Source: Pseudomonas sp. A34-9 (GTDB lineage: Bacteria > Pseudomonadota > Gammaproteobacteria > Pseudomonadales > Pseudomonadaceae). Taken from it: DNA of 64,000 nucleotides. A program made the position numbers and the translations under genes. The notes beneath the pieces are model-generated. The model saw only the letters and a list, made by a program, of their open reading frames with translations, ran no database searches and was not told the origin of the DNA. Location of the stretch: positions 1,018,501-1,082,500 of the forward strand of contig NZ_CP119967.1 in assembly GCF_029543085.1 (NCBI RefSeq). Reading direction: 5' to 3'. This document shows, piece after piece, positions 51,549 to 56,871 of the stretch (its first letter is position 1; every line of letters starts with the position of its first letter).

Positions 51549-51599
51549 CTTGAAGCTTGAAGCTTGAAGCTTGAAGCTTGAAGCTTGAAGCTTGAAGCT
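51549..51599. repeat. Tandem heptamer array, seven copies of CTTGAAG
   Basis: Seven exact copies of CTTGAAG occupy 51549-51597, followed by CT. The folX stop codon begins at 51599, so the array touches the 3' end of folX. An inverted partner GCTTCAAGCTGCAAG at 51504-51518 suggests the array grew from one arm of a palindrome. Copy number may vary between strains. Confidence 0.9.
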
Positions 51600-51970
51600 C
51601 AGCGGCTCGCCGCGAGCGTTATCGATACCGATTCGGCAAACCGCAGCGCATGCGGCTTGTCGACTTCGACCTCGGCGTAAAGCACCGAGCCGTTGCTCAT
51701 TACCAGATCGAGCAATTCCTGAGTCAGGCGTTCGAGCAGGGCAAAACGGTTGCCCTCGACGTGGGCGATGATCGCTTTGGTGATCGTGCGGTAATTGAGT
51801 GCATGATCGATGTCGTTGTCACGCACCGCTTCCTGCGCGGCATACAGAATGGTCAGGTTGATCAGCACATCCTGCTTGTTGAGGATTTCGTCCTCGTTGA
51901 TCCCGATAAAGGTGCGCAAGCGCAGATCCTTGACCCGGATGCGCGCCATTCCCGGCTGAAGTTGTGGCAT
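51599..51970 (-). CDS. folX: Dihydroneopterin triphosphate 2'-epimerase
   Basis: FolX epimerises dihydroneopterin triphosphate toward monapterin, leading to tetrahydromonapterin, the phenylalanine hydroxylase cofactor in Pseudomonas. The 123-residue product is a FolB/FolX tunnel-fold enzyme ([19 protein letters not shown]). FolX rather than FolB is preferred because the next two genes are folE and a folM-like reductase. Its ATG directly abuts the folE stop. Confidence 0.85.
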
Positions 51971-52531
51971 TTACTTGCTCCGTCCAATCAATTGCAGGAA
52001 CTCCTGGCGGGTGTTGCTCGACTCGCGGAACGCGCCGAGCATGACCGAGGTGTTCATGGTCGAATTCTGTTTTTCGACACCGCGCATCATCATGCACATG
52101 TGTCTGGCCTCGATGACGACGGCGACGCCGGCAGCATCGGTGACCTGTTGCACCGCATCGGCAATTTGCCGGGTGAGGTTTTCCTGAATCTGCAGGCGCC
52201 GGGCGAACATGTCCACCAGTCGCGCGATTTTCGACAGGCCCAGTACCTTGCCTGTCGGAATATAAGCCACATGGGCCTTGCCGATGAAGGGCAGCAGGTG
52301 ATGTTCGCACAATGAGTACAGTTCGATGTCGGCGACGATGATCATCTCGTCACTGTCCGAGGCAAACAGCGCGCCATTGACGATCTCGTCGACGCTCTGC
52401 TCATAGCCATGACACAGGTATTGCATGGCCTTGGCGGCGCGCAGCGGGGTGTCGAGCAATCCTTCACGGTCGGGATCTTCACCGAGGCCGATGAGGATTT
52501 CGCGGTAGTTCTCGGGCAGTGAGCGGCTCAT
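51971..52531 (-). CDS. folE: GTP cyclohydrolase I
   Basis: FolE converts GTP to dihydroneopterin triphosphate. The 186-residue enzyme has zinc ligands in [10 protein letters not shown] and HMCMMMRGV, and the conserved [14 protein letters not shown]. Clustering with folX and folM suggests this paralogue supplies monapterin rather than folate. Confidence 0.94.
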
Positions 52532-52552: not shown

Positions 52553-53263
52553 TTATTTGACGTGCCTTCCGCCGTTGACGGTCAGGGTCGTGCCGGTGAC
52601 ATAAGGGTTGTCGAGCAGATAGCGCAGGCTCTGATAAATCACTTCGCTGCCGGGCTCCAAGCCCAGCGCGGATTTGGCCAGGGCCTTGACGCGGTACGCT
52701 GCGTCGTCATCGGGATTGAACAATAGCAGGGCCGGGGCTATGCCGTTGACCTTGATGGCCGGCGCATAGCGGGCGGCGAAGGACAGGGTCAGGCTGTCGA
52801 GCCCGGCCTTGGTCGCGCAATAGCCGATGTGCTTGCTGCTGCCCTTGCGGGTGACATCGTCGCTGATGTGGATGATGTCGGCGGGCGTCGAGCGTTGCAG
52901 CAATTGGCCGCAGTGCAGGTTGATCAGGTACGGCGCGAGCATGTGCAGATTGAACATGCGCGTGAAGGCTTCAGCCTCGCTTTGCGGGGTTTCGGCCAGC
53001 CATTCGGAGGCGTTGTGCACGATGGCGCGCAGGCTGTCGGTGTGGGTTTTCAGTTCGCTGATGAAGGCGAGAATCCCGGCCTCGCTGGAGAAATCGGCGA
53101 ACAGGCCGATGGCGCCCAGATCTCGTAGCGTCTGCACGCCGGGTCGCTCGCTGCGGTAAGTGAAGATGACGCGATGGCCTTCTTCGAGTAACCGCTGCGC
53201 GCAATGCAGACCGACGCGCTGGCCGGCACCGGTGATGAGGATCGGGGCTGAGGAATCAGGCAT
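52553..53263 (-). CDS. folM: Dihydromonapterin reductase
   Basis: FolM is a short-chain dehydrogenase that reduces dihydromonapterin to tetrahydromonapterin. The 236-residue product has a TGxxxxxG-like cofactor motif (ITGAGQRVGLH), a NAS segment and the catalytic YCATK. The arginine-rich TYRSERPG loop suits NADPH. It is the first gene of folM-folE-folX. The start is MPDSSAPILITG at 53263. Confidence 0.9.
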   Translation of the reverse strand: MPDSSAPILITGAGQRVGLHCAQRLLEEGHRVIFTYRSERPGVQTLRDLGAIGLFADFSSEAGILAFISELKTHTDSLRAIVHNASEWLAETPQSEAEAFTRMFNLHMLAPYLINLHCGQLLQRSTPADIIHISDDVTRKGSSKHIGYCATKAGLDSLTLSFAARYAPAIKVNGIAPALLLFNPDDDAAYRVKALAKSALGLEPGSEVIYQSLRYLLDNPYVTGTTLTVNGGRHVK

Positions 53264-53312
53264 GAACGGCTCGCATCGCGGTTGGAGCAAAAACTATAAC
53301 AGCGACGAGCCG

Positions 53313-53387
53313 GAAAAGATCGCCGCCTGCGGCAGCTCCTGCCGTCCTGCAGGAGCTGTCGAGTGCAACGCGGCTGCGATCTTTAAT
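53313..53387. repeat. REP-like palindrome, type I, arms outward, variant right arm
   Basis: The left arm GATCGCCGCCTGCGGCAGCTCCTGC is followed by GCAGGAGCTGTCGAGTGCAACGCGGCTGCGATCTT. The right arm carries a variant GAGTGCAACGC block. The repeat overlaps the TAA stop of the next gene. Confidence 0.75.
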
Positions 53388-53949
53388 GTTTCTGAGGCGT
53401 CGCCGAAACAGGCAGCCGCACGGGCGTGCTGTTCAGCCAGTTCGCCAGCAATCGGGTCGACAATGGAATAAAGAAGTAAACCATCAGCGGCGTCAGGCAC
53501 GCCGTGCTGATCAACACGCGCGGCAACAAAGTCAACTCAGCGAGCAACGGGCCGAGAACAAAGTTGAACAGCACTGATACCGGAAAAAACGCCAGCCAGA
53601 TCGCGACGGCCTGCTTCCAGCGCGGTGGACGCTGACCGGCAGCGCCGAACCAGCCTTCGATACCGCTGACCCGGTGCTCTTTCGGGTGGGCGAACAGATC
53701 GCTGCCACGGCTCAACCACGCGGTGCGTGATGCCGAATGTTCCCACGCATACAGAGTGTGTTCGTCGACAAAGCGGAAAATGATCTGAAACTCGTTATCG
53801 CCGGGCGGCGGGGCGAGTACGCCAGATCCGAGATAACCGGGAAAGTCAGTGGCCAGTTGCTCGCCTTCGCGCAGCCAGGCGATCAGATCCTGATAGCGGC
53901 CATCAGCGACGCGACGGGCAACCATCAGCGTGACGGGGGAAGTAGACAT
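53383..53949 (-). CDS. Antibiotic-biosynthesis-monooxygenase-domain membrane protein
   Basis: The 188-residue product has an N-terminal ABM ferredoxin-like domain (about residues 5-100, TLMVARRVADGRYQDL, FQIIFRFVDEHTLYAWE). Two membrane segments follow near residues 125-180. ABM relatives include small cofactor-free oxygenases and haem-degrading enzymes, but key residues cannot be assigned. Its stop lies inside a REP-like repeat. Divergent from the LitR-like regulator. Confidence 0.82.
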   Translation of the reverse strand: MSTSPVTLMVARRVADGRYQDLIAWLREGEQLATDFPGYLGSGVLAPPPGDNEFQIIFRFVDEHTLYAWEHSASRTAWLSRGSDLFAHPKEHRVSGIEGWFGAAGQRPPRWKQAVAIWLAFFPVSVLFNFVLGPLLAELTLLPRVLISTACLTPLMVYFFIPLSTRLLANWLNSTPVRLPVSATPQKH

Positions 53950-54094
53950 TGTGTATCTCCGTATTTCGAGTGCGTCATTCCGGGTAGGAATTTCGCCTGA
54001 CGCAGGGCCGGGGTAGAGGCCTGCGTTTTTCAACAAGCAAGGATTATTCCGGTTTTTCACGATTAAACCAGAGACTTTCGTCGCATTTGATCAC

Positions 54095-54125
54095 TTGAAC
54101 CTCATCGGGGCATAAGCGTTAGAAT
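54095..54125 (+). promoter_or_regulatory. Candidate promoter of the LitR-like regulator with a 19-bp spacer
   Basis: TTGAAC (54095-54100) and TAGAAT (54120-54125) are separated by 19 bp, the long spacer seen at promoters controlled by MerR-family proteins. It lies 37 nt upstream of the preferred start and might be autoregulated. The same TAGAATG -10 occurs before the LOV gene. Confidence 0.4.
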
Positions 54126-54162
54126 GGGATCCAATTGAACCGACATGGAAGTTGAGCGCCAT

Positions 54163-55122
54163 ATGCCTGTCATCACGGACGCAAGCCCTGCTTTGGACGC
54201 ATCTGTTGCGCTTCAGCGCGTCGATCTGTTCCCGATCCGTGAGGTCGCACGCCTGACAGGTGTCAACCCGGTGACCTTGCGCGCTTGGGAGCGGCGCTAT
54301 GGTTTGATTCAGCCGACACGCACCGAAAGCGGGCATCGGCTGTATTCGATGACCGAAATCGAGCGCGTGCGCAGCATCGTTGACTGGATTGATCGTGGTG
54401 TTGCCGTGAGCAAAGTCGGCAAGATTCTGGCCAAGACCGACCCGATGAAAGTACTGGCGCACATTATCCCGGATGATCTGGTGCAAGCGGATTACCTGCA
54501 GTGGCAGGAACAGATCCAGCAAGCGGTCAGCGCATTCGATGATCAGCAACTGGACCGCGTATATGGTCAGATTTTCTCTTCTTACTCATTGCCGGTGGTG
54601 TTTCAGGACATCCTGATGCCGCTGTGGCTGCAATTGTTGCAGCGCCAGGAAGCTTTCGGGCAAACCAGCGAGTGGCTGTTCTTCGATGGATTCCTGCGGG
54701 CGCGGGTGTTGCAAAGGATCGTCATGCTGCGTGGCACCCAACCGCGTCGTGTGATCGTCAGCGCGCTGGCCGGGCAATGTCGAGAGCTGGAATTGCTGGT
54801 GGCGGCGCTGTTTCTCAGCGAAAGCAACGCCGGTGTCAGGGTGTTGACCACGGGGCAGCCGTTCGATGAACTGACGCTGGTCTGCGAAAAGATCAAACCC
54901 GAAGCGCTGGTTCTGTTTTCCAATCACGCGCCCGGCGCCGATTTACCTCGGCGATTGAACCGGTTGGCGTTAAGCCTCGATTGTCAGTTGATGCTGGCGG
55001 GCGATGCGTCAGATCTGGCGCAAGACAGTCTGGCCGGATCCTCTGTTGCCTGTCTGGGCAATGAAGGAGCGAACATGCGTCAGCGCATGTTGCAGTTTCT
55101 GGCCGGCAAGCTGGATACCTGA
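54163..55122 (+). CDS. MerR-family LitR/CarH-like regulator without recognisable B12 ligands
   Basis: The 319-residue protein has a MerR HTH at residues 23-62 (REVARLTGVNPVTLRAWERR, then GHRLYS), a helical bundle (about 100-190) and a Rossmann-like domain (195-290), the CarH/LitR layout. The lower-ligand motif expected as E-x-H-x-x-G reads GQCRELE, so His is replaced by Arg. The bundle E-H pair reads E-W (SEWLFFDG). It therefore resembles the B12-independent LitR class of pseudomonads. The start at 54163 (MPVITDASP) is preferred; ATG 54145 is possible. Tail-to-tail with the PilZ gene. Confidence 0.85.
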   Translation: MPVITDASPALDASVALQRVDLFPIREVARLTGVNPVTLRAWERRYGLIQPTRTESGHRLYSMTEIERVRSIVDWIDRGVAVSKVGKILAKTDPMKVLAHIIPDDLVQADYLQWQEQIQQAVSAFDDQQLDRVYGQIFSSYSLPVVFQDILMPLWLQLLQRQEAFGQTSEWLFFDGFLRARVLQRIVMLRGTQPRRVIVSALAGQCRELELLVAALFLSESNAGVRVLTTGQPFDELTLVCEKIKPEALVLFSNHAPGADLPRRLNRLALSLDCQLMLAGDASDLAQDSLAGSSVACLGNEGANMRQRMLQFLAGKLDT

Positions 55123-55125
55123 AAC

Positions 55126-55731
55126 TCAGGTGTGAAGGGCAGGATGCGTCAAGCGATGTTGCTGCAGGATGAACTGACGCAGACGTTCGGTTTCGTCGGT
55201 ATCGGTCTGGCTCAGTTCGTAGGCGAAGAACCCGTTCTCGGTTTCCCGTTCGAAATTACCGCGCAATGAAATCCGCTCGTAACCCGAAGGGCTGAACCAC
55301 AAAGCGAAATGCTTGGGAGGTTTGGTCTTGTTGCGCACTTCCAGCAGCACACCTTTGTGCGAAACCTCGTGGACCCACAACGTGCCTGGCTGACCCTTGG
55401 CGTTTTCCAGGGCTACCGGCTCTTCGAGGGCCAACCGCCATGGCCGTACCATCGGGCCGTCTTCATAAATGCTTGGTACGCCGAGGCGCAGATGCAACGC
55501 GTGAAACTCGTCTTCCACCAGATGCAACGGGAAGGTCATCTGCTGATTTTCGAAGTTGGCCTGAATGGTCACTTGCTCGTGAGCAGCCAGGCGCGTGAGC
55601 AAATCACGAATCTGCGAACCGCCGTTAACCAGCAGACTCGACGTCGCATCCCGCACGTTCAGTTGCGGGTTGTGCTGCATGGTCTGGATGAAATCCAGCT
55701 CATCCTGAGTGAGGAGGGCGTCGCGCTGCAT
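55126..55731 (-). CDS. PilZ-like domain protein downstream of the LOV gene
   Basis: The 201-residue product has an N-terminal YcgR-like beta domain (about 45-95) and a C-terminal PilZ-like barrel. The c-di-GMP motifs are imperfect: RPWRL stands for RxxxR, and EVSHKG stands for D/NxSxxG. Binding of c-di-GMP is therefore uncertain. The ATG at 55731 is preferred; a GTG at 55785, directly after the LOV stop, would add 18 residues. It is almost certainly co-transcribed with the LOV gene. The PilZ assignment is by fold pattern. Confidence 0.72.
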   Translation of the reverse strand: MQRDALLTQDELDFIQTMQHNPQLNVRDATSSLLVNGGSQIRDLLTRLAAHEQVTIQANFENQQMTFPLHLVEDEFHALHLRLGVPSIYEDGPMVRPWRLALEEPVALENAKGQPGTLWVHEVSHKGVLLEVRNKTKPPKHFALWFSPSGYERISLRGNFERETENGFFAYELSQTDTDETERLRQFILQQHRLTHPALHT

Positions 55732-55785
55732 GGCTAACTCGAAAGATATAGTTACAAAGTCATTGGTGATTGTAGTTAATGACAC

Positions 55786-56262
55786 TTAGTTCGCGATTTT
55801 GTTTTGACCGTTTGTCGCTTTCAATGTGGCCAGTTCGGATTCGAGGGCTGCGACCTGCGCTTCCAACTGCACCACACGCTGCTGAGCCTTGACCTGAACG
55901 GTGACGTCCTTCTGCACGCCAATGAAATAGGTCTGCCCGTCATCGGTGTTTTTCACCGTTGAAAGCGACAGTTCATTCCAGAATGGCGTGCCGTCCTTGC
56001 GATAATTGCGCAGGATTTCGCGGCACGATCCATTGTTGCGCAAGACATCGCGAATCAGCTCCAGACTCTCCTGATCACGGTCCCCGGCCTGCAGAAAGCG
56101 GCAGTCCTGATAAAGAATTTCTTCGCTGGTGTAACCGGTCAGACGTTCAAACGCCGGGTTTACATAAATCAGGATATTGTCGTGGTCACCCTCCTTTTCG
56201 GCGACTACGATGCCGTCGTTCGACGCGTTGATCACCATTTGCAGCAGACTTGCATTGATCAT
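55786..56262 (-). CDS. Short LOV blue-light photoreceptor protein
   Basis: The 158-residue protein is one LOV-type PAS domain with a C-terminal helix and no effector, like the short LOV proteins of P. putida. The photoactive cysteine is C54 in YQDCRFLQ (GxNCRFLQ motif). FMN-binding N86 (LRNYRKDG), N96 (FWNELSL) and Q117 (IGVQKDV) are present. R62 matches a phosphate-contacting Arg, while residue 67 is Leu where slow-recovering homologues have Arg. Residues 121-150 form a heptad-like helix suited to dimerisation. Ribosome site AAGGA precedes the ATG. Confidence 0.9.
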   Translation of the reverse strand: MINASLLQMVINASNDGIVVAEKEGDHDNILIYVNPAFERLTGYTSEEILYQDCRFLQAGDRDQESLELIRDVLRNNGSCREILRNYRKDGTPFWNELSLSTVKNTDDGQTYFIGVQKDVTVQVKAQQRVVQLEAQVAALESELATLKATNGQNKIAN

Positions 56263-56415: not shown

Positions 56416-56871
56416 ATGAAAGTCGCCATCCTCTCCGGTTCGGTCTACGGCACCGCCGAAGAAGTCGCCCGTCACGCCCAGAACCTGTTGAAAGCCGCCG
56501 GGTTTGAAACCTTCTACAACTCGCGCGCCAGCCTGGCGGACATTCAAGCGTTCGGTCCTGAAGCGTTTCTGGCGGTGACCTCGACCACCGGCATGGGCGA
56601 GTTACCCGATAACTTGCAGCCGCTGTATTCGACCATTCGCGACCAGTTGCCAGCCGCGTGGCGCGGTTTGCCGGGCGCGGTAATTGCCTTGGGCGACGCC
56701 AGTTACGGCGACACCTTCTGCGGTGGTGGCGAGCAGATGCGTGAGCTGTTCGGCGAACTCGGTGTGCGCGAAGTACAAGACATGCTGCGCATCGACGCCA
56801 GCGAAAGCGTCACTCCGGAAACCGACGCCGAGCCTTGGCTGGCACAGTTGATCGACACGCTCAAGGGTTGA
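56416..56871 (+). CDS. Flavodoxin (MioC-like)
   Basis: The 151-residue product is a short-chain flavodoxin of the MioC type, an FMN electron carrier. The phosphate-binding loop is SGSVYGTAEE (residues 7-16), and the FMN-contacting loops TSTTGMGELPDN and LGDASYGDTFCGGG are clear. The ATG at 56416 begins the domain; the frame extends upstream without similarity. It diverges from the LOV gene across 153 bp, so the two flavoproteins share a control region. Confidence 0.9.
   Translation: MKVAILSGSVYGTAEEVARHAQNLLKAAGFETFYNSRASLADIQAFGPEAFLAVTSTTGMGELPDNLQPLYSTIRDQLPAAWRGLPGAVIALGDASYGDTFCGGGEQMRELFGELGVREVQDMLRIDASESVTPETDAEPWLAQLIDTLKG

What the first reader, a model, noticed from the sequence alone, without database searches (positions are those of the whole stretch)
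54163..56262. Probable light-sensing cassette: short LOV protein, PilZ-like protein and a LitR/CarH-type regulator without B12 ligands
A complete short LOV photoreceptor (C54 in DCRFLQ) is followed on the same strand by a PilZ-like gene. Tail-to-tail with them, 3 nt away, is a MerR/LitR-family regulator. In P. putida, B12-independent LitR proteins are reported to work with a short LOV protein, so LOV-to-LitR signalling is likely. The PilZ-like gene as a third member could join blue light to surface or c-di-GMP behaviour; I do not know of this triple being described.
Basis: partly seen in the sequence, partly recalled or inferred. Interest (0 to 1): 0.85.

Follow-up and report, generated by a model that had tools for sequence, protein, structure and literature searches.

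The report
Known Pseudomonas blue-light switch locus
The two light genes here are orthologues of a published bacterial blue-light switch (a flavin light sensor that pulls a repressor off DNA), and the third gene between them looks like a neighbour that many relatives carry without the switch.

Summary
In detail: an intact short LOV protein (C54 in DCRFLQ), a 201-aa PilZ-fold protein behind it and, tail-to-tail 3 nt away, a LitR regulator lacking CarH's B12 ligands. The LOV-LitR half is published: Maruyama et al. 2022 (PMC9758184) showed in P. mendocina that lit PmSB-LOV binds PmlR2 and takes it off DNA, and stated that the cluster pmlR2-PME15565-pmSB-LOV is conserved in Pseudomonas. So the triple is in print too, the middle gene without the word PilZ.

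New here: over 199 Pseudomonas genomes LOV and LitR occur together (both 170, one alone 3, neither 26), while the middle gene is independent (without LOV 25, LOV without it 6). In 24 of 24 LOV-less loci read it stays beside a flavodoxin gene. Of 58 family members none has the full canonical c-di-GMP signature. A light-to-c-di-GMP triple is not supported.

Side lead: 25 of 27 LOV-less genomes keep the sister regulator LitR1, 23 with a perfect operator upstream, 10 with no canonical LOV motif anywhere. What feeds LitR1 there is open.

The parts
54145..55122 (+). class II LitR (PmlR2/PplR-type MerR regulator); start may be ATG 54163
   Evidence: 325 aa, MerR HTH at about 30-96, no B12 domain at E <= 0.1, CarH ligand positions replaced
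55126..55731 (-). PilZ-fold protein, 201 aa, N-terminal part plus PilZ domain at 93-200; position of PME15565 in P. mendocina
55786..56262 (-). short LOV protein, C54 in DCRFLQ
56416..56871 (+). flavodoxin, neighbour of the LOV/PilZ-like genes
53383..53949 (-). protein with a weak ABM match (20.5 bits, below Pfam's cut-off 23.1) between LitR and folM; start ATG 53949 chosen by me
52553..53263 (-). folM, dihydromonapterin reductase (start ATG 53263 chosen by me); no LitR operator within 2 mismatches near it in this strain
51971..52531 (-). folE, GTP cyclohydrolase I
51599..51970 (-). folX, dihydroneopterin triphosphate 2'-epimerase

Best explanation
A known blue-light anti-repressor switch with a neighbour gene in its midst. 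In the dark LitR (PmlR2 type) represses promoters bearing TRTACA-N12-TGTAYA. Blue light makes the C54-FMN adduct in the short LOV protein, which then binds the HTH part of LitR and takes it off DNA; the genes come on until the adduct decays. In this genome the likely targets lie elsewhere: the RudS-LitR1-photolyase operon (two perfect tandem operators) and a CryB-like photolyase-related gene (one). The PilZ-fold gene between LOV and LitR goes with the flavodoxin-folM neighbourhood and is not a needed part of the switch. Shown by others in P. mendocina: LOV-LitR binding, release from DNA, anti-repression. Shown here by sequence: parts, residues, co-occurrence, operators. Inferred: that this strain's pair behaves like P. 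mendocina's, that the listed genes are its targets, and that the PilZ-like protein is dispensable for it.
For: Orthologous pair characterised in PMC9758184. Key residues present. LOV x LitR over 199 genomes: 170 both, 2 LOV only, 1 LitR only, 26 neither; middle gene x LOV: 166 both, 25 middle gene only, 6 LOV only, 2 neither. In 24 of 24 LOV-less loci read the middle gene stays beside flavodoxin, LitR being gone in 23; in 5 of 5 loci read that lack the middle gene LOV and LitR stay adjacent. Outside the genus, of 15 loci with the middle gene 4 hold both LOV and LitR, 11 neither (3.6-kb stretches only). Flavodoxin tree of 100 rows: LOV at least 12 changes, LitR 11, middle gene 1 (weak tree). 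Own-genome operators: 5 perfect sites against 0 in the reversed control; two lie before RudS-LitR1-PhrB and one before the CryB-like gene.
Against: In at least 6 genomes LitR lies over 10 kb away or on another contig while LOV and the middle gene stay adjacent (G186, G068, G117, G147, G193, G165), so adjacency there favours LOV plus middle gene. The middle gene starts 54 nt behind LOV on the same strand and may be co-transcribed. No light experiment exists for this strain in what I read. On well-supported tree branches only 3 independent pairs remain. No operator was found beside LitR or folM here, unlike P. mendocina's folM. Two of the five perfect operators are not explained by a light gene. 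Seven of the 171 LitR-positive genomes score only 5e-57 to 6e-79 and may hold another LitR paralogue.
Confidence: 0.78

Rival explanations
1. A true three-part light module: the PilZ-fold protein modulates LOV or LitR, or binds c-di-GMP and gates the light response.
For: Same strand, 54 nt behind LOV; order kept in 79 of 80 named loci; stays next to LOV in 6 genomes where LitR has moved; R96, W98, R99 invariant in 58 of 58, S124 in 54, G127 in 53; PilZ fold.
Against: Present in 25 genomes without LOV and absent from 6 with LOV; in 11 of 15 loci of other genera it stands with no LOV or LitR in the fetched stretch; the full RxxxR plus [D/N]xSxxG signature is met in 0 of 58, each half in 6.
Confidence: 0.15
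2. (Compatible with the best explanation.) The PilZ-like protein serves the flavodoxin-folM neighbourhood or a surface function unrelated to light, perhaps with c-di-GMP binding through a shortened arginine motif (RxxR).
For: Flavodoxin beside it in 24 of 24 LOV-less loci read and a FolM-family gene near in 21 of 24; fold matches c-di-GMP receptors such as YcgR, MrkH and Alg44.
Against: Neighbourhood is not function; Arg spacing is one short and Glu stands at the Asp/Asn position in 46 of 58; three LOV-less genomes have no folM nearby; in G208 and G235 no flavodoxin was found in the stretch.
Confidence: 0.35
3. LitR here is a B12 photoreceptor of the CarH kind and the LOV gene is incidental.
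For: LitR/CarH homology over residues 28-258.
Against: B12-ligand positions replaced and no B12 domain by Pfam at E <= 0.1; LOV and LitR co-occur almost perfectly; PMC9758184 says that B12 is not needed in P. putida.
Confidence: 0.02

Closest known systems
PmlR2 / PmSB-LOV of Pseudomonas mendocina NBRC 14162 (PMC9758184), with PME15565 in the cluster and folM-folE-folX beside
   Same: Same set of genes: short LOV with adduct Cys, class II LitR, a middle gene, fol genes near by
   Different: A gene with a weak ABM match lies between LitR and folM here; PmlR2 keeps a Pfam B12-binding_2 match, this LitR none at E <= 0.1; P. mendocina has TGTACA-N12-GGTATA before folM, this strain and 80 close relatives have no such site
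PplR1-3 with PpSB1-LOV and PpSB2-LOV of P. putida KT2440 (Sumi et al. 2020, not held; known through PMC9758184)
   Same: Class II LitR controlled by short LOV; photolyase, CryB and fol targets
   Different: Three LitR and two short LOV there; here two LitR (E <= 1e-15) and one short LOV (E <= 1e-25) were found
YcgR, MrkH and MotI, two-domain PilZ proteins
   Same: PilZ fold in residues 93-200 with a beta-rich part before it in the model
   Different: Canonical RxxxR and [D/N]xSxxG not met; at most 18% identity in the aligned parts
CarH / class I LitR
   Same: MerR HTH and overall plan
   Different: B12 ligand positions replaced

Membership tests
short LOV photoreceptor | single LOV domain with adduct Cys in [N/D]CRFLQ, no effector domain | tested here: met
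   158 aa, C54, PAS/LOV matches over most of the length and no effector-domain hit above Pfam's cut-off
short LOV photoreceptor | light-induced FMN adduct and dark recovery | not testable with these tools
   needs purified protein
class II LitR | MerR HTH of LitR/CarH type | tested here: met
class II LitR | no B12-binding capacity | tested here: met
   sequence level only: no B12 domain hit, CarH His positions replaced
LOV/LitR anti-repressor switch | both partners present, and retained together across genomes | tested here: met
   170 both, 2 LOV only, 1 LitR only, 26 neither of 199
LOV/LitR anti-repressor switch | LitR operators at light genes in the same genome | tested here: met
   tandem perfect sites before RudS-LitR1-PhrB, one before the CryB-like gene; two further perfect sites unexplained
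LOV/LitR anti-repressor switch | light-dependent LOV-LitR contact | not testable with these tools
   shown for the P. mendocina pair (PMC9758184)
PilZ fold | PilZ beta barrel | tested here: met
   (predicted model, pLDDT 79)
c-di-GMP-binding PilZ | RxxxR and [D/N]xSxxG (motif recalled) | tested here: not met
   RxxxR in 6 of 58, [D/N]xSxxG in 6 of 58, both in 0; the window's own has RPWR and EVSHKG. Binding itself not tested
three-gene light cassette | the middle gene co-occurs with LOV more than chance | tested here: not met
   both 166, middle gene only 25, LOV only 6, neither 2; p 0.30

The most novel reading that the evidence does not exclude
Class II LitR (LitR1) has an input other than short LOV. 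Several Pseudomonas lineages have neither a short LOV nor, with one exception, the second LitR, yet keep LitR1 with operators upstream of its operon (and two of them a perfect operator at folM). Ten of these genomes encode no canonical LOV motif and none of the 34 genomes tested has a BLUF domain, so LitR1 there would sense light or damage through an unknown partner or by itself.
Probability: 0.35. Interest if true: 0.55.

Novelty: already known. Interest (0 to 1): 0.3.

Why it matters
It settles that the eye-catching triple is an instance of a published switch, and that its PilZ-like member should not be read as a light-to-c-di-GMP link without direct tests. The comparison also leaves a clean question: what controls LitR1 in Pseudomonas that have no short LOV.

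Tried and rejected
Pfam and NCBIfam on the window's middle protein alone gave nothing useful; phmmer and a profile search against PDB sequences gave no match; the family-wide Pfam scan and the fold search showed PilZ. A B12-photoreceptor reading of LitR was rejected on missing ligands. An operator beside this LitR or folM was looked for and not found (nothing within 2 mismatches there; the two matches in the whole window compare with 1.17 expected). One search, an alignment meant to compare the LitR upstream region with relatives, took coding parts of LitR from the relatives and was not used. PMC11231323 (passages only) gave no LitR or PilZ. PMC11417400 (passages only) calls class II LitR B12-dependent, against PMC9758184; I follow the latter. 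Searches for the middle gene in print: 'PA3436' (recalled as a possible P. aeruginosa locus tag; 0 papers); LOV+PilZ+Pseudomonas+blue light (12 papers, none on this locus by title and start of abstract); PmlR2/PplR/PilZ/folM and others (98 papers, 15 listed); 'class II LitR' (4 papers). Two of the five perfect operators in this genome (4370325; 6217481, inside a porin-like reading frame) were not assigned to a light gene.

Limits and rows dropped: the presence cut-offs (LOV and LitR at E 1e-45) were chosen by me at gaps in the tables; LOV hits of 1e-26 to 1e-30 in 7 genomes were counted as absent; 7 genomes counted as LitR-present score only 5e-57 to 6e-79. The 199 genomes include the window's own. 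G116 (no LOV) and G143 (no middle gene), and G092 and G122 (neither), were not read for neighbourhood. G208 and G235 were dropped from the tree for want of a flavodoxin in the stretch. In the tree, states of genus members are genome-wide, those of other genera are from 3.6-kb stretches. Gain and loss of LOV-LitR were not told apart. G211's middle gene carries one internal stop in the search.

Full report
What is there. The window is part of a 6.54-Mb single-contig genome; its nearest named relatives by the middle protein are loci labelled P. viridiflava, P. fluorescens, P. chlororaphis, P. koreensis and others. Around 51-57 kb the order is folX-folE-folM and a gene with a weak ABM match on the minus strand, LitR on plus, then the middle gene and LOV on minus, then flavodoxin on plus. 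LOV is 158 aa with C54 in DCRFLQ and aligns over nearly its whole length with its two closest solved relatives, over residues 1-134 or more with the other ten listed. LitR is a MerR protein related to CarH, with CarH's EH read as EW and GERHE read as GQCRE; Pfam reports no B12 domain at E <= 0.1.

What is published. PMC9758184 (parts 1-5 of 8 of the text read) shows for P. mendocina that illuminated PmSB-LOV binds the N-terminal part of PmlR2, inhibits its DNA binding and restores transcription in vitro, that this needs C53, and that folM and folE are light-induced 1.6- to 3.3-fold while pmlR2 and pmSB-LOV are nearly constant. It also says that the cluster pmlR2, PME15565, pmSB-LOV is conserved in Pseudomonas spp.. 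The word PilZ does not occur in its main text. Sumi et al. 2020 on P. putida is not held and is known to me through that paper.

Do the three genes belong together? The middle gene, LOV and LitR were each sought in the same 199 genomes of the genus, the window's own included. LOV at E <= 1e-45: 172; LitR of this type at E <= 1e-45: 171; middle gene: 191. LOV with LitR: 170 both, 2 LOV only (G090, G141), 1 LitR only (G185), 26 neither. Middle gene with LOV: 166 both, 25 middle gene only, 6 LOV only, 2 neither (Fisher p 4e-29 and 0.30; not corrected for kinship). I read 24 of the 27 LOV-less loci: in 24 of 24 the middle gene lies beside flavodoxin, a FolM-family gene is near in 21, LitR is gone in 23. 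I read 5 of the 6 loci with LOV but no middle gene: LOV and LitR are adjacent in 5 of 5. In the family beyond the genus the middle gene was found in 15 genomes (22 of 79 in all, 7 of them in the genus); LOV and LitR are both present in the fetched stretch in 4, both absent in 11. On a flavodoxin tree of 100 genomes (51 of 96 inner branches poorly supported; G208 and G235 left out) LOV changed state at least 12 times, LitR 11, the middle gene once; on well-supported branches only 3 independent pairs remain, LitR going with LOV in about 2.9 of 3, the middle gene in about none. Against this reading, in at least 6 genomes LitR is over 10 kb away or on another contig while LOV and the middle gene are still neighbours. 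Among 80 named loci, picked by likeness of the middle protein (best 80 of 279), 80 have LitR and 79 LOV; the exception, L062, lacks LOV only. There the stop-to-stop distance of LitR and the middle gene is 1-19 nt in 78 of 80 (two were not resolved by my script), and the LOV Cys is found at residue 54 in 77 of 79.

Operators. TRTACA-N12-TGTAYA with no mismatch occurs 5 times in this genome and 0 times read backwards; over 30 genomes 92 against 3 (my sum of the table, 27 of the 30 being LOV-less). Two of the five begin 93 and 44 bp before the start of a RudS-type gene (L095:6963) that is followed by LitR1, PhrB, a SnoaL-like gene, an SDR and an FAD oxidoreductase; one begins 90 bp before a CryB-like (DPRP) gene. 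This resembles the P. mendocina P6650 promoter with its two sites and the PhrB-LitR-RudS operon named in PMC11417400 (passages). A site within one mismatch of the consensus, often TGTACA-N12-GGTATA, stands just before folM in 16 of 35 loci from more distant relatives, among them 7 LOV-less and 5 without the middle gene, but in 0 of 80 close relatives and not in the window. So here the fol genes are probably not direct targets although they are neighbours.

Side lead. Of the 27 LOV-less genomes 25 keep LitR1 (G092 and G122 do not). 23 of the 25 have a perfect operator within 1.5 kb upstream, G116 one with a mismatch, G179 a perfect one 1.8 kb upstream. LitR1 in these 25 lacks the CarH EH pair. 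10 of the 25 encode no [N/D]CRFLQ motif anywhere (G020, G103, G109, G126, G169, G181, G183, G185, G188, G189; G185 still has both LitR); five of the ten are single-contig genomes. The other 15 do hold such a motif, in proteins I did not read. No BLUF domain was found in any of 34 genomes. Other LOV variants, phytochromes or non-light signals were not tested, and G122, with no LitR1, still has two perfect sites.

Verdict. Observation confirmed; LOV-LitR reading right but published; the triple as a functional unit not supported; c-di-GMP link unsupported. Interest 0.3, mainly for the independence of the PilZ-like gene and the LOV-less LitR1 regulons.

Noticed in passing
G000:C1:5425400-5432800 (L095:5488-12770): Probable light operon of this genome: RudS-type gene, LitR1, photolyase, SnoaL-like, SDR, FAD oxidoreductase, with two perfect tandem LitR operators before it and a one-mismatch site before a neighbouring amine-oxidase-like gene.
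   Followed up: partly
25 LOV-less genomes, LitR1 loci L198-L219, L221, L223, L224: LitR1 persists without a short LOV, in 23 of 25 with a perfect operator within 1.5 kb; 10 of these genomes have no canonical LOV motif at all.
   Followed up: partly
L062:5365-7553: A P. frederiksbergensis locus (DM22) lacking only the LOV gene while LitR and the PilZ-like gene remain.
   Followed up: no
window 53263-54145: The folM operator seen in 16 of 35 loci of more distant relatives is missing in this strain and in 80 of 80 close relatives.
   Followed up: yes
PMC11417400: That paper (passages seen) calls class II LitR adenosyl-B12-dependent, which disagrees with PMC9758184 and with the residues seen here.
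   Followed up: partly
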